In this document: in pieces, positions 4,816-57,634 of the stretch | How the letters are laid out: every line of letters begins with the position of its first letter | Numbering within the stretch: position 1 is the stretch's first letter | Assembly (NCBI GenBank): GCA_028135785.1 | Contig: JAOIHS010000002.1 | Location: 70,222-134,221, forward strand | DNA from: SAR86 cluster bacterium | GTDB lineage: Bacteria; Pseudomonadota; Gammaproteobacteria; Magnimaribacterales; AG-339-G14 | DNA length: 64,000 nt | Direction of reading: 5' to 3' | The notes under the pieces: generated by a model | Database searches by the model: none | Seen by the model: only the letters and a program-made list of their open reading frames with translations | Told to the model about the DNA's origin: nothing | Program-made: the position numbers and the translations under genes

Positions 4816-5588
4816 TATCTACTTCTTAACTTAGAAAGCAGTCTTAACATTTCTAAATACAACCAAATTAAAGTCACCATGAGAGAGAAGGCACCAAACC
4901 ACTCCATATATAAAGGCGCGCCGTGCTCAGCTCCTTGCTCAATAAAGTCAAAATCTAAAACTAAATTTAAAGCTGCTATGGCTACGACGAAAAGACTGAA
5001 TCCAATTCCAAAAAGACCATTAGAATGGATGAATCCAATACCTGAGCCAAACATGTTCATCACCATACTAACGACGTATAGCAAAGCAATCCCCATAGTC
5101 GCTGAAACGATCATCAGTCTAAAATTTTCTGTAGGTTTTATTACCCCCGTTTTATATAAAACTAATAAAGAGGCCAAAGTTCCTAAAGTTAAACCAACTG
5201 CTTGAATAACTATTCCAGGAAATTGAAGTTCGAATATTGCGGAGATTGCTCCTAAAAATAAACCTTGAGATAGAGCGTATAAAGGGGCGGTGATTGGAGC
5301 CCACGTTTTCTTAAAGATAGTAGCTAAGGCGAATATAAAACCAAAAATTGCTCCACCTATTGCAATAGGCATAACAGTTTCAGGAAGACCGGTAGAGAAA
5401 AACTGATTCCAAGTGTACGATGCTGTCAAAACTACAAGCAAAAGTAGAATACCTGTCTTGTTTACAGTTCCTTGAAGACTCATGGTTCTGCCGGTTAAAG
5501 AGTCAGGAGTGAAGTTAGAAAAAGTTGCATCATTCATAGCAGGGTTTCCGGATCTGCCGAACATATTTAAAGCGTTGTGTTTAGACAT
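4815..5588 (-). CDS. Bax inhibitor-1/YccA-type membrane protein
   Basis: A 257-aa integral membrane protein with about seven hydrophobic segments after a short cytoplasmic N-terminus (NMFGRSGNPAMNDATF). That N-terminus and the GRTMSLQGTVNKTGILLLL segment match the BaxI_1 branch of the TMBIM/Bax inhibitor family, which is common in bacteria and has no well-fixed role; calcium leak and protease-associated quality control are reported for relatives. It has an ATG start. It is followed without a gap by the 69-aa membrane gene. Confidence 0.85.
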   Translation of the reverse strand: MSKHNALNMFGRSGNPAMNDATFSNFTPDSLTGRTMSLQGTVNKTGILLLLVVLTASYTWNQFFSTGLPETVMPIAIGGAIFGFIFALATIFKKTWAPITAPLYALSQGLFLGAISAIFELQFPGIVIQAVGLTLGTLASLLVLYKTGVIKPTENFRLMIVSATMGIALLYVVSMVMNMFGSGIGFIHSNGLFGIGFSLFVVAIAALNLVLDFDFIEQGAEHGAPLYMEWFGAFSLMVTLIWLYLEMLRLLSKLRSR

Positions 5589-8441: not shown

Positions 8442-9502
8442 TAATTCTTTTATCGAGTATTTTTTTATTTTCCTGTTCTTCAGAGAAAATATCAAATACT
8501 TCAAATGAAATAAAAGAAACATTTAAGTGGAGAATGGTCACCACTTGGCCAAAGAATTATCCTGGTGTCGGCCTAGGTGCTGAAAATCTTGCCAAGCTAG
8601 TCAATGAAATGAGCGATGGTAGATTACAGATAAAAGTATTTGGAAATGGAGAATTGGTTCCAGCCTTAGAAGTCTTTGATACCGTTTCAAGAGGAAGTGT
8701 AGAAATGGGCCATGGGGCAGCTTATTACTGGATTGGAAAAGTTCCCGCCGCACAATTCTTTACTGCCATTCCTTTCGGATTAAATGCTCAAGAAATGAAT
8801 GCCTGGCTTCATTACGGTGGCGGTCAAGAACTTTGGGAAGAGTTATATGAGCCTTTTAATTTAATCCCAATGGCCGGCGGCAATACTGGCGTTCAAATGG
8901 CAGGTTGGTTTAATAAGGAAATAAATTCACTAAATGATTTGAAAGGTATTCGTATGAGAATTCCTGGAATGGCTGGAGAGGTATTTACTAGAGCTGGGGG
9001 AGAAGCTGTTTTAATGCCAGGTAGTGAAATCTTTACAAATTTACAAACTGGCGTCATTGATGCTGCAGAATGGATAGGTCCATACAATGATTTAACTTTC
9101 GGCTTTCATCAAGCAGCTAAATATTATTACTATCCAGGTTGGCATGAACCAGGACCAACTCTTGAAACTTTAGTTAATAAAGAGGCGTTTAATTCTTTAC
9201 CAAAAGATCTTCAAGTTATTCTAGTTACTGCTTCAAGAGCAGTTAATCAAGATATGCTTGATGAATATACTGCGAGAAATAATCAAGCATTAATATCTTT
9301 AATAAATGATCATGGAATTGAGTTAAGAAAATTACCTGACGATGTTTTGGCAGAGTTTAAGAAAATTACAGACGAACTTTTATTAGAAATGATCGAAAAA
9401 GATGACGCTTCAAGAAAAATTTATAAATCGTTATCTGAATTTCAGAAAAATGTTTCTGATTACCATGAGATTTCTGAAAAAGCTTTATACGATCTTCGTT
9501 AA
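8402..9502 (+). CDS. TRAP transporter solute-binding lipoprotein (DctP family)
   Basis: A 366-aa periplasmic substrate-binding protein. The N-terminus is a lipoprotein signal with lipobox LFSC (Cys about residue 25), so it should be tethered to a membrane. The mature part has the DctP-family blocks WRMVTTWPKNYPGVGLGAENLAKLV, AAYYWIGK, FGLNAQEMNAWLHYGGG and IDAAEWIGPYND, like binders of 2-oxo acids or other carboxylates. The ATG at 8402 is the only standard start ahead of the signal peptide, so the 40-base overlap with uvrD looks real. The partner permease genes lie about 1.4 kb away on the opposite strand, an unusual split for a TRAP system. Confidence 0.93.
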   Translation: MASFKFCKVKQNLIILLSSIFLFSCSSEKISNTSNEIKETFKWRMVTTWPKNYPGVGLGAENLAKLVNEMSDGRLQIKVFGNGELVPALEVFDTVSRGSVEMGHGAAYYWIGKVPAAQFFTAIPFGLNAQEMNAWLHYGGGQELWEELYEPFNLIPMAGGNTGVQMAGWFNKEINSLNDLKGIRMRIPGMAGEVFTRAGGEAVLMPGSEIFTNLQTGVIDAAEWIGPYNDLTFGFHQAAKYYYYPGWHEPGPTLETLVNKEAFNSLPKDLQVILVTASRAVNQDMLDEYTARNNQALISLINDHGIELRKLPDDVLAEFKKITDELLLEMIEKDDASRKIYKSLSEFQKNVSDYHEISEKALYDLR

Positions 9503-54611: not shown

Positions 54612-54655
54612 GTGCCCAGAGGTGGAATCGAACCACCGACACAAGGATTTTCAGT
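54612..54655 (-). repeat. Distal att repeat (partial tRNA-Phe copy)
   Basis: 44 bases identical to 57561-57604: T-arm, variable region and 3' half of the anticodon arm of tRNA-Phe. The sequence departs just inside the anticodon region. The final CCA is absent here (reads CACAA on the minus strand). Confidence 0.92.
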
Positions 54656-54730
54656 TCTAGTCTCTTATTGATATAAGCTTTTCGAAATAATAATATTAGG
54701 TAATGAGAATTAATTTTAAGGTCTTTAAAT

Positions 54731-55450
54731 ATGCCAAAGAAGATTAAGGGTATAAATGTCTCAGTCTATTCAAAGAAGATTGAATCGCTCAAAAAAAACT
54801 TCAGCATTCTTAGTGTTGACGCAAATAAAATATTAAATAAATACGAAAATATATCTTTTGAAGACACATATTTATCAAAAAAAGAATCTTTTATTTCATT
54901 AATGAGATTAAACCCAAGCATGGCACTTATAAGGTATCTTGACTCAAAGACAGACCTTTGGCACTTCAAAGATAAAAGAACAAACATTGAATATGCAATT
55001 GATTTAGTATTAGGTTGGTTAAGTGAAGATATAATTATTTCTCATCTAAGAGAAAAAAGCATTAAATGTGATTTAAATGGCAGAGATAAGTATAGAGAGT
55101 TTCTAAGTCCAAAATATATCTCTGCACAACCTGACATAAAGATAAAAATTAATGAACGATATAGAACACTTGAAATTGCGAATGATTGGAATGACTACTG
55201 GATTAGGTCAGATATGCTGGATCTAAGAGATAACAAGTTTCTAAAACTAAGAAATGAAAAATCATTATTTCTTGGAATTGCGCCACTATCCTCAAAGGGA
55301 ATCTTCTTAGATTTCTCTGAAAAATTAGATTTTATTAAGAGATTTAATCCCGCATACGGTAAGAGCGCTTATACTTTAAAAAAAATTCGAAATAGAATGA
55401 ATAATATTGATATATCGATACAAGAATTGTTATCAGTAAAATATGAATGA
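54731..55450 (+). CDS. Candidate restriction nuclease, PD-(D/E)xK-like (unproven)
   Basis: A 239-aa soluble protein, first gene of the island. I do not recognise a named family. The central part reads SEDIIISHLREKSIKCDL, then SAQPDIKIKINERYRTLEIANDW (P134-D135 and E148). That is a PD...E-x-A pattern resembling a PD-(D/E)xK nuclease core, but with Ala where the catalytic Lys is usual. N-terminal coiled and basic segments precede it. It overlaps the next gene by eight bases, so they form an operon opposite a cytosine methyltransferase. A specificity or nuclease subunit is the best guess. Confidence 0.6.
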   Translation: MPKKIKGINVSVYSKKIESLKKNFSILSVDANKILNKYENISFEDTYLSKKESFISLMRLNPSMALIRYLDSKTDLWHFKDKRTNIEYAIDLVLGWLSEDIIISHLREKSIKCDLNGRDKYREFLSPKYISAQPDIKIKINERYRTLEIANDWNDYWIRSDMLDLRDNKFLKLRNEKSLFLGIAPLSSKGIFLDFSEKLDFIKRFNPAYGKSAYTLKKIRNRMNNIDISIQELLSVKYE

Positions 55451-56060
55451 TACAGAATTTAAAAAGTATGCAAAAATTTTAAAAGATAGTTATGTTGAAC
55501 ATCTTGAGAAAGAACAAGTAAAGTTTCCAAGTGGAATCAAGTTATATGAGCTTTGTTATTTATATAAAAATTTTAAAAAACCATTAGCGATAAGTGAAAT
55601 ATCAAATGCAGTTCAAAAAAAATACCCTAACCAGGATGGCAAACAAGCAAGACACTTAGCAGGGTCTGGTTGGTATCTAAAGACTGGAACAAAGACAGCA
55701 ACAATTTTTCAATATGATGAAAATATACCTCATGCTCACCTGATGTTATTTTCAATAAAAGAAAAAAATCCAAAATATAATCCAAAAAAAAGGGATGACA
55801 TAATTAATGCAACAGAATGGGAAGATATTTTGAAGTTATTCAATAAAAGAGGTTGTGCAGTATGCGGCATTAAGGATGTAAGTTATGACAAAGGACATTT
55901 AGATGATGAAAAAGGATACAGAGATAATGTTGTACCAATGTGTAGATCTTGCAATAACTGGGGCATGAAATACAAATTAAAATTTGAATTAGATAAAAAT
56001 AATCCTCTTATTGCAAGACCAGTTCTCAAAGGAAGAAATTTTAAGTTTTCAGAGATTTAA
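55443..56060 (+). CDS. HNH endonuclease, probable restriction enzyme
   Basis: A 205-aa protein. The C-terminal part is a zinc-supported HNH fold: CAVCG (C138, C141), YDKGHLDDEKGYRDNVVPMCRSCNNW with H152, N162 and C167-x2-C170. The N-terminal 120 residues (LAISEISNAVQKKYPNQDGKQARHLAGSGWYLKTG) look like a small DNA-recognition domain. The gene overlaps the upstream candidate by eight bases and converges tail-to-tail on the methyltransferase with a 20-base overlap. This fits a Type II restriction enzyme protected by that methylase. The target site is unknown. Confidence 0.8.
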   Translation: MNDTEFKKYAKILKDSYVEHLEKEQVKFPSGIKLYELCYLYKNFKKPLAISEISNAVQKKYPNQDGKQARHLAGSGWYLKTGTKTATIFQYDENIPHAHLMLFSIKEKNPKYNPKKRDDIINATEWEDILKLFNKRGCAVCGIKDVSYDKGHLDDEKGYRDNVVPMCRSCNNWGMKYKLKFELDKNNPLIARPVLKGRNFKFSEI

Positions 56061-57114
56061 ATATCTCTTTACCTAGCGCCTTTGCTAGATGAAATGGAAC
56101 TGCATTTCCAATTTGAAGATTTTTACTAGTTTTACTTCCATAAAATATATAACTATCTGAAAATCCTTGTAATCTTGCTCCTTCTCTTGTTGACAGCGCT
56201 CTGTTTTGAAAAGGATGTATACATCTAGATGATGAAGGCGTACCAAAATTCCTTGTTATTGTTGGCGAAGGCAAGTCACTATCAAGTCTTGCATAAGTAT
56301 TACCAAAATAACTCTTGGGTCTCAGTTGGTCTGGCAAATCTTTGATGGAACCATTTTTAGGAACTAAAGACATTATAAGTTTCATTTTCTCGCCATAATT
56401 AGTTGAATTATGTTCAGAAAGAATTTTTTCCTTGCCTCTTAATTCTTTTTGCAGCGTAGTTTTTGGTTCTAAGTATGTATCACTTTTATCATTAGAGCCT
56501 AACGGCGGGAGGTCAGAGATTGCATCCGAAAGAATATTATATTTCTTTGTAAAAAGATTCCCATCTTTGCTGTGGGTAGGCACAGGAAAGTCAAAAATTA
56601 TTCCATCTTTGTAACCTACTACAATTGTTCTCTTTCTATGTTGTGGAGAACCATAATTTGCTGCATCAAGAATCCCACTTTTTACTTTGTAACCAATATC
56701 GCTTAGTTCAGAAACAAGCGTATTAAATGCTATTCCTTTATAAAGTTTTTTGAACCCTGAAACATTTTCAAACAAAACCATTCTAGGATTGATTTCTTCA
56801 ACCGCTCTAAGAAATTGCCAAAATAAAGAATTCCTTTTGTCTTTCTCATTTTTCTTTCCAACTGTGCTGAAACCTTGACATGGCGGACCTCCGCATACCA
56901 GATCAAGTCTTTCAGGATGAATATGTTTTAAGACCTCAGAATAATTTACATTTCCTATGTCCTCACTAATAACTAGGCACTTCTTATGATTTCTCTTAAA
57001 TGTTTCTGCGAAATCTTTATTAATTTCTACTGCAACCAAAGATCTAATACCTTCTTGTAGTAACCCACAAGACAATCCTCCTGCACCTGAAAATAGATCT
57101 ATTGAATTAAACAT
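56041..57114 (-). CDS. DNA (cytosine-5-)-methyltransferase
   Basis: A 357-aa m5C methyltransferase. Motif I IDLFSGAGGLSCGLLQEG binds SAM, motif IV GGPPCQGFSTVGKKNEKDKRN holds the nucleophile Cys79, motif VI is ENVSGF (116-121), motif VIII is GSPQHRKRTIVVGY. The variable target-recognition region spans about residues 180-280, then motif IX (ARLDSDLPSPTITRNFGTPSSSRCIHP) and motif X LQIGNAVP. It should modify the site cut by the neighbouring nuclease operon and guard the host. Confidence 0.95.
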   Translation of the reverse strand: MFNSIDLFSGAGGLSCGLLQEGIRSLVAVEINKDFAETFKRNHKKCLVISEDIGNVNYSEVLKHIHPERLDLVCGGPPCQGFSTVGKKNEKDKRNSLFWQFLRAVEEINPRMVLFENVSGFKKLYKGIAFNTLVSELSDIGYKVKSGILDAANYGSPQHRKRTIVVGYKDGIIFDFPVPTHSKDGNLFTKKYNILSDAISDLPPLGSNDKSDTYLEPKTTLQKELRGKEKILSEHNSTNYGEKMKLIMSLVPKNGSIKDLPDQLRPKSYFGNTYARLDSDLPSPTITRNFGTPSSSRCIHPFQNRALSTREGARLQGFSDSYIFYGSKTSKNLQIGNAVPFHLAKALGKEIFKSLKT

Positions 57115-57237
57115 AAATTATTTTATTAAGTAATCTTAGGAATAATAACTTAACCTAAAATATTAGTAGTGGATACATCTAGAAGAGATTTTTTAAAAGT
57201 AATTCTGGCAGGTGGGATTTAAATTCCAACTTTCTCA

Positions 57238-57498
57238 ATGGCAGAAAGTTTTTTATTAAATAACAAAAAAGATCCAAATATCAGTGAAGTTATTATCACT
57301 TCTGATGCTTTACAAAGAAGTTATAGCGATCTTGACGAGATAAATCTTAGTTTTGTATTTTATTCTTTACTGCTTGAATATTCAGAATACCTATATTCAT
57401 TTATGATCATTGTTCTTGCCTTGCTGGTATTCTCAATTAGCGGCATTCCAATGATAGATACTCTTTATCTTGGTATTGAAGAACACTTTAAAATATGA
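57238..57498 (+). CDS. Possible 86-aa membrane protein in the island
   Basis: An ORF with one hydrophobic helix (about residues 49-70) and a polar N-terminal part. No ribosome site is apparent and no family is recognised. It lies between the methyltransferase start and the tRNA. It may be a remnant or a chance ORF. Confidence 0.3.
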   Translation: MAESFLLNNKKDPNISEVIITSDALQRSYSDLDEINLSFVFYSLLLEYSEYLYSFMIIVLALLVFSISGIPMIDTLYLGIEEHFKI

Positions 57499-57558
57499 AC
57501 ACTCAAACTAATGTTCATAAGTGTTCATAAAACTCTAATTTAAGAAATGCTTTAAGAG

Positions 57559-57634
57559 TGGTGCCCAGAGGTGGAATCGAACCACCGACACAAGGATTTT
57601 CAGTCCTTTGCTCTACCAACTGAGCTATCTGGGC
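57559..57634 (-). tRNA. tRNA-Phe (GAA)
   Basis: The minus strand folds as a 76-base tRNA: acceptor GCCCAGA/TCTGGGC, D-arm GCTCAGTTGGTAGAGC, anticodon arm with loop CTGAAAA (anticodon GAA), T-arm GGTTCGATTCC, and an encoded CCA. It is intact and contains the proximal att repeat. Confidence 0.97.
57561..57604 (-). repeat. Proximal att repeat within tRNA-Phe
   Basis: The 3' 44 bases of the tRNA, from the anticodon loop to the discriminator base, repeated exactly at 54612-54655. This marks the integration site of the island. Confidence 0.92.

What the first reader, a model, noticed from the sequence alone, without database searches (positions are those of the whole stretch)
54612..57604. Minimal restriction-modification island inside a tRNA-Phe gene, without an integrase
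The sequence shows a perfect 44-bp duplication of the tRNA-Phe 3' part flanking about 2.9 kb that hold two candidate nuclease genes and a cytosine methyltransferase. Such att repeats are the known trace of tyrosine-integrase insertion, yet the island encodes no integrase. It may be a satellite moved by another element's integrase, or a decayed remnant kept because loss of the methylase would be harmful.
Basis: partly seen in the sequence, partly recalled or inferred. Interest (0 to 1): 0.85.

Follow-up and report, generated by a model that had tools for sequence, protein, structure and literature searches.

The report
Integrase-less restriction-modification cassette at tRNA-Phe
In the ocean bacterium SAR86, small packets of DNA-defence genes sit beside one tRNA gene without carrying the enzyme that inserts them, yet most keep what look like that enzyme's docking sites, so they probably spread by borrowing another element's enzyme.

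Summary
An intact tRNA-Phe (57559-57634, -) is followed by a 2.9-kb island closed by a perfect 44-bp copy of the tRNA 3' part. The island encodes a C5 methyltransferase, a probable HNH nuclease and an unassigned ORF. Four same-genus genomes have the empty site.

It is one of 51 att-bounded tRNA-Phe elements in 44 of 203 SAR86 genomes (median 1.8 kb). Only two encode a tyrosine integrase. Restriction-modification is the commonest identifiable cargo.

Most integrase-less elements keep what look like integrase arm-type sites: 8-9-bp direct repeats, most often at +30 (spacing 10) and -70 (spacing 12) from the core. The motif varies between elements but matches between the two ends of one element (0 of 100,000 permutations). 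Similar repeats lie beside the integrase gene in integrase-bearing relatives.

These elements move horizontally: one is 99.4% identical over 1,813 bp between genera whose neighbouring gene is 78.6% identical.

Best reading: satellites mobilised in trans. The window copy keeps its tRNA-side arm sites but has none at the far end, so it may be stranded. The kind is known (CIMEs, hitcher elements); the arm-site anatomy and rarity of helpers are the new points.

The parts
57559..57634 (-). tRNA-Phe (GAA), intact; integration target
   Evidence: ARAGORN; Rfam
57561..57604 (-). tRNA-proximal att core (44 bp, 3' part of tRNA-Phe)
54612..54655 (-). distal att core, perfect 44-bp copy of the tRNA-Phe 3' part
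57520..57528 (-). presumed arm-type site 1 (ATGAACACT)
   Evidence: binding not tested
57510..57518 (-). presumed arm-type site 2 (ATGAACATT, one change from class motif), 10 bases from site 1
57495..57503 (+). presumed arm-type site 3 (ATGAACACT, inverted relative to sites 1 and 2)
57494..57558 (-). conserved tRNA-side end of the element; 65 bp of it 92% identical to G034_E2 of another genus
56041..57114 (-). DNA (cytosine-5) methyltransferase, 357 aa
   Evidence: PF00145 E 7.9e-71; TIGR00675
55443..56060 (+). probable HNH endonuclease, 205 aa, convergent with the methyltransferase
   Evidence: PHROG E 3e-4; cysteine motif by eye
54731..55450 (+). ORF of 239 aa overlapping the start of the HNH gene; function unassigned
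   Evidence: no match; model unusable
54656..54730 (-). far end of the island; the arm pair seen here at -70/-58 in sister elements is absent
57169..57498 (+). probable gene remnant: twin-arginine-like start (VDTSRRDFLK), in-frame TAA, then an 86-aa ORF ending at the arm sites
   Evidence: read; no family match for the 86-aa ORF

Best explanation
The island belongs to a family of non-autonomous integrative cassettes of SAR86 that use the 3' half of tRNA-Phe as att core. They encode no integrase, but most keep attP-like ends: the core plus short arm-type repeats. A tyrosine integrase of a matching arm class, supplied in trans by a helper that is only occasionally resident, would bind these ends, circularise the cassette and insert it at tRNA-Phe. 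The commonest identifiable cargo is restriction-modification. Shown: att duplication, empty sites, repeat geometry and matching ends, absence of integrase, integrase elements at the same site, horizontal transfer of integrase-less elements. Inferred: that the repeats bind integrase, that the helper acts in trans, how the DNA passes between cells, and that the window copy, lacking a distal arm pair, is now poorly mobile.
For: 51 att-bounded elements in 44 of 203 genomes, only two with an integrase. Integrases sit beside the distal att at the same tRNA in G032, G059 and G178. End repeats at 27 and 31 of 48 ends against 64 and 55 of 700 internal segments; motif matched between the two ends of one element, 0 of 100,000 permutations. 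In the ATGAACACT class the far-end sites are invariant while flanks drift. Repeats of the same kind lie between att and integrase start in integrase-bearing relatives. G030 (no integrase) and G032 (integrase), same genus, share the GTGAACCTA repeat and right end (score 82, next best element 28). G007_E2 and G008_E1 99.4% identical over 1,813 bp against 78.6% for neighbouring pip; G034_E2 and G081_E1 90% over 1,666 bp across families.
Against: No integrase with the commonest layout (spacings 10 and 12) was found at tRNA-Phe: G032 and G059 use spacing 11 at other offsets; the spacing-12 relatives found target other tRNAs. No excised circle or attP junction was seen, and viral contigs have no match to the att core. 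The window copy lacks the distal arm pair. About a third to two fifths of ends show no pair by this test. Genomes are incomplete, so helpers may be missed.
Confidence: 0.72

Rival explanations
1. Dead remnants: each island descends from an autonomous element that lost its integrase in place and no longer moves.
For: The window copy has no distal arm pair, one altered arm site and a probable gene remnant. Only two of 51 elements keep an integrase.
Against: Integrase-less elements are nearly identical between genera whose neighbouring gene is much more diverged; motifs at both ends stay matched; same-class ends flank unrelated cargo.
Confidence: 0.15
2. CIME-type mobility in cis: islands move only when an integrase element lands next to them and the pair excises together.
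For: Tandem arrays exist (G002, G007, G034, G056, G114, G129). This is the accepted model for similar islands (PMC5704250, PMC3146451).
Against: None of the tandem arrays found includes an integrase element, most islands stand alone, and cis movement would not by itself require each cassette to keep its own matched pair of arm motifs.
Confidence: 0.18
3. No dedicated integrase: the host XerC/XerD recombinases, or RecA acting on the ~47-bp repeats, move the islands.
For: Near-complete genomes with islands (G002, G008, G009, G010, G013, G038, G056) show only one or two Phage_integrase-family hits, of Xer size.
Against: Neither process needs matched arm repeats at fixed distances; Xer proteins lack an arm-binding domain and act at dif-like sites (established knowledge). 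Tyrosine integrases beside the same att exist in the order.
Confidence: 0.08

Closest known systems
CIMEs (cis-mobilizable elements), e.g. Dehalococcoides ssrA islands without integration module (PMC5704250, PMC3146451)
   Same: Keep attL and attR at an RNA gene, no integration or transfer genes, occur in tandem.
   Different: CIMEs are described as decayed elements moved in cis by accretion. Here integrase-less forms dominate, both ends carry a matched repeat motif in many elements, no integrase neighbour is present, and lone elements are shared between genera.
tRNA/tmRNA-targeting islands with defence cargo, e.g. Pseudomonas I23/I44/I55 (PMC12595487)
   Same: RNA-gene target, flanking direct repeats, defence cargo, no genes for autonomous transfer.
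   Different: The Pseudomonas islands encode a tyrosine integrase needed for excision; nearly all SAR86 cassettes do not.
CALINs and MITEs (hitcher elements, PMC11389934)
   Same: Recombination sites kept, enzyme supplied by another element.
   Different: Different recombinases and sites; no attC sites or transposon ends are involved here.
Tycheposons (seen only in secondary sources, e.g. PMC10872708)
   Same: Marine streamlined bacteria, tRNA-bounded islands with cargo.
   Different: Described as 4-200 kb and associated with a tyrosine recombinase; these are mostly 0.7-6 kb without one. The primary paper was not available.

Membership tests
CIME | att sites on both sides | tested here: met
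   44-bp repeat and empty sites
CIME | no integration or transfer genes | tested here: met
   HMM scan of the island and family searches
CIME | derived by decay of an autonomous element | tested here: inconclusive
   distal arm pair missing in the window copy, but sister elements keep both ends and transfer
CIME | moved in cis by accretion with an adjacent element | tested here: inconclusive
   no integrase element adjacent in any array found; movement itself was not observed
Trans-mobilised satellite (hitcher) of a tyrosine integrase | helper integrase recognising the same att exists | tested here: met
   G032, G059, G178 at the same att
Trans-mobilised satellite (hitcher) of a tyrosine integrase | element carries the helper's binding sites | tested here: inconclusive
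   G030 matches G032; for the window class no helper of the same motif was found; binding untested
Trans-mobilised satellite (hitcher) of a tyrosine integrase | excision in trans | not testable with these tools
   needs an assay or junction reads
Tycheposon | tyrosine recombinase with cargo at a tRNA | tested here: not met
   no recombinase in the island
Type II restriction-modification system | DNA methyltransferase | tested here: met
   PF00145 E 7.9e-71
Type II restriction-modification system | cognate restriction endonuclease | tested here: inconclusive
   HNH protein at PHROG E 3e-4; cleavage untested; 239-aa ORF unassigned

The most novel reading that the evidence does not exclude
SAR86 maintains a shared pool of small defence cassettes made of attP ends plus cargo, sorted into compatibility groups by arm-site sequence and moved by integrases of transient helpers (phages or other mobile elements) that leave almost no trace in host genomes.
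Probability: 0.5. Interest if true: 0.75.

Novelty: new variant of a known kind. Interest (0 to 1): 0.62.

Why it matters
It would show how an abundant, streamlined ocean lineage gains and swaps phage defences with elements of about 1-5 kb that standard island searches, which start from an integrase gene, would miss. The matched end motifs give a sequence code by which cassettes and helpers could be paired in metagenomes, which makes trans-mobilisation of integrase-less islands directly testable.

Tried and rejected
ORF239 structure prediction without homologs was unusable (pLDDT 30). ORF239 and the HNH protein have no homolog in the other 202 genomes of the order; ORF239 has none in plasmids or phages and the HNH protein none in plasmids. 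The att core has no exact match in viral contigs. The pattern ATGAACACTN{1,3}ATGAACACT over all genome contigs hits mostly unrelated bacteria, as expected for so short a pattern; an Arsenophonus locus and a viral contig, nearly identical in the stretch read, have it beside an integrase, but that is about what chance could give, so it is not used as support. An excisionase role for the 107-aa protein found no support: no family and no significant fold match.

Full report
OBSERVATION. The window lies in a genome of the SAR86 cluster; sister loci carry that name in public records. The tRNA-Phe is intact, and its 3' part recurs as a perfect 44-bp copy 2.9 kb away. Four of seven same-genus genomes have tRNA-Phe joined directly to pip; G002, G004 and G007 carry other insertions at the same point. 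The island is therefore an insertion at a hot spot. Its ORF239 and HNH genes occur in no other genome of the order, while relatives of its methyltransferase occur in nine other tRNA-Phe elements.

FAMILY. The order holds 203 genomes. Searching the att core gave 44 genomes with att-bounded elements, 51 elements in all, 0.2-9.5 kb, median 1.8 kb. Integrases of the G032 type are strong in only three genomes (G032, G059, G178), with weaker relatives in G189 and G037. An HMM scan of all 51 elements finds an integrase only in G032_E1 and G059_E1; in G178 the integrase lies beside a distal att on a short contig. Near-complete genomes that carry integrase-less islands (for example G008, G009, G010, G013, G038, G056) show only one or two Phage_integrase hits, of Xer size. 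Genome incompleteness limits the negative statements for the rest.

CARGO. In 92 cargo proteins Pfam finds ten C5 methyltransferases plus parts of type I, type III and other restriction systems; a few elements carry other genes such as an alternative oxidase, a desaturase or dehydrogenases. The window island, a methyltransferase with a convergent probable HNH nuclease gene, fits this.

ENDS. Just inside the att cores lie short direct repeats. The commonest layout has a tRNA-side pair at +30 with spacing 10 and a far pair at -70 with spacing 12. Pairs occur at 27 and 31 of 48 ends against 64 and 55 of 700 internal segments. The motif varies (ATGAACAC, ATGAACAG, TAACACAC, TTGAACAG, GTGAACAG, TGTCCCCA and others) but agrees between the two ends of one element: a mean of 3.02 shared 8-mers (capped at 6) against 0.84 for other pairings, reached in 0 of 100,000 permutations with near-identical copies removed. 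Remaining relatedness between elements is not modelled. In the ATGAACACT class the two far-end sites are invariant in six elements while the bases around them drift, and the tRNA-side sites are 93% invariant against 38% outside. Comparable repeats lie between att and the integrase start in integrase-bearing elements at tRNA-Phe and at two other tRNA-derived sites (the tRNA identities at the latter are read by eye). By analogy with lambda-type integrases (established knowledge) these are arm-type sites. Binding itself is inferred. One caution: the tRNA-Phe integrase elements found use spacing 11 at somewhat different offsets, so the helper of the commonest layout at tRNA-Phe has not been seen.

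MOBILITY. G007_E2 and G008_E1, from different genera, are 99.4% identical over 1,813 bp, although the neighbouring pip genes are 78.6% identical; G034_E2 and G081_E1, from different families, are 90% identical over 1,666 bp. None has an integrase. G030 (no integrase, one 1,027-aa cargo protein) and G032 (integrase), of the same genus, share the GTGAACCTA repeat and the right end, with a local alignment score of 82 against 28 for the next element. This is the best candidate satellite-helper pair.

THE WINDOW COPY. Its tRNA-side 65 bp match G034_E2 at 92%, with two direct presumed arm sites and one inverted; one of them has a change (ATGAACATT). The far end has no such pair, and ORF239 begins 75 bases from the att core. 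A probable gene remnant lies next to the arm sites. So this copy looks like a former or partial cassette; whether it can still move is open.

COMPARISON. Elements that keep att ends but lack integration genes are known as CIMEs (PMC5704250), and fifteen ssrA islands without an integration module are reported in Dehalococcoides (PMC3146451). Other hitchers that depend on a foreign recombinase are reviewed in PMC11389934. Tycheposons were considered from secondary sources only. No paper in the held library was found that describes the SAR86 family, but most subscription papers are not held. What differs here is the dominance of integrase-less forms, the matched end motifs and the direct signs of transfer. 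I therefore call it a new variant of a known kind.

Noticed in passing
L025:4106-4429 (-), L112:101-394 (+), L274, L276, L277 and others: A ~107-aa protein family with no known relatives occurs in nine tRNA-Phe elements, in the G189 integrase contig and in 36 of 199 genomes overall, some copies near tRNA-Ile or tRNA-Glu. Predicted fold has no significant match.
   Followed up: partly
G096, G100, G124, G133 elements (L089, L091, L095, L097): Both repeat pairs (spacing 10 and spacing 12) lie at the tRNA-side end and none at the far end, in four elements with different cargo.
   Followed up: no
G112_E1 (L093): The two ends belong to different motif classes (ATGCACAG and ATGAACAC), which looks like a chimeric element.
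   Followed up: no
G034_E1, G077_E1, G114_E2, G129_E2, G140_E1 right ends: A different right end with an inverted repeat GAGCAAG...CTTGCTC (or close variants) in place of the direct repeats.
   Followed up: no
L274 (G092:C16), 4966-4986 and 8823-8843: A 21-bp direct repeat at the 3' end of tRNA-Glu brackets about 3.8 kb and a repeat pair lies nearby, so the phenomenon may extend to other tRNA genes.
   Followed up: no
G032_E1 and G059_E1 (L024, L029): Both integrase elements carry a 416-465-aa protein of phrog_4756 with a VHDE motif like that of family-A DNA polymerases (motif by eye).
   Followed up: no
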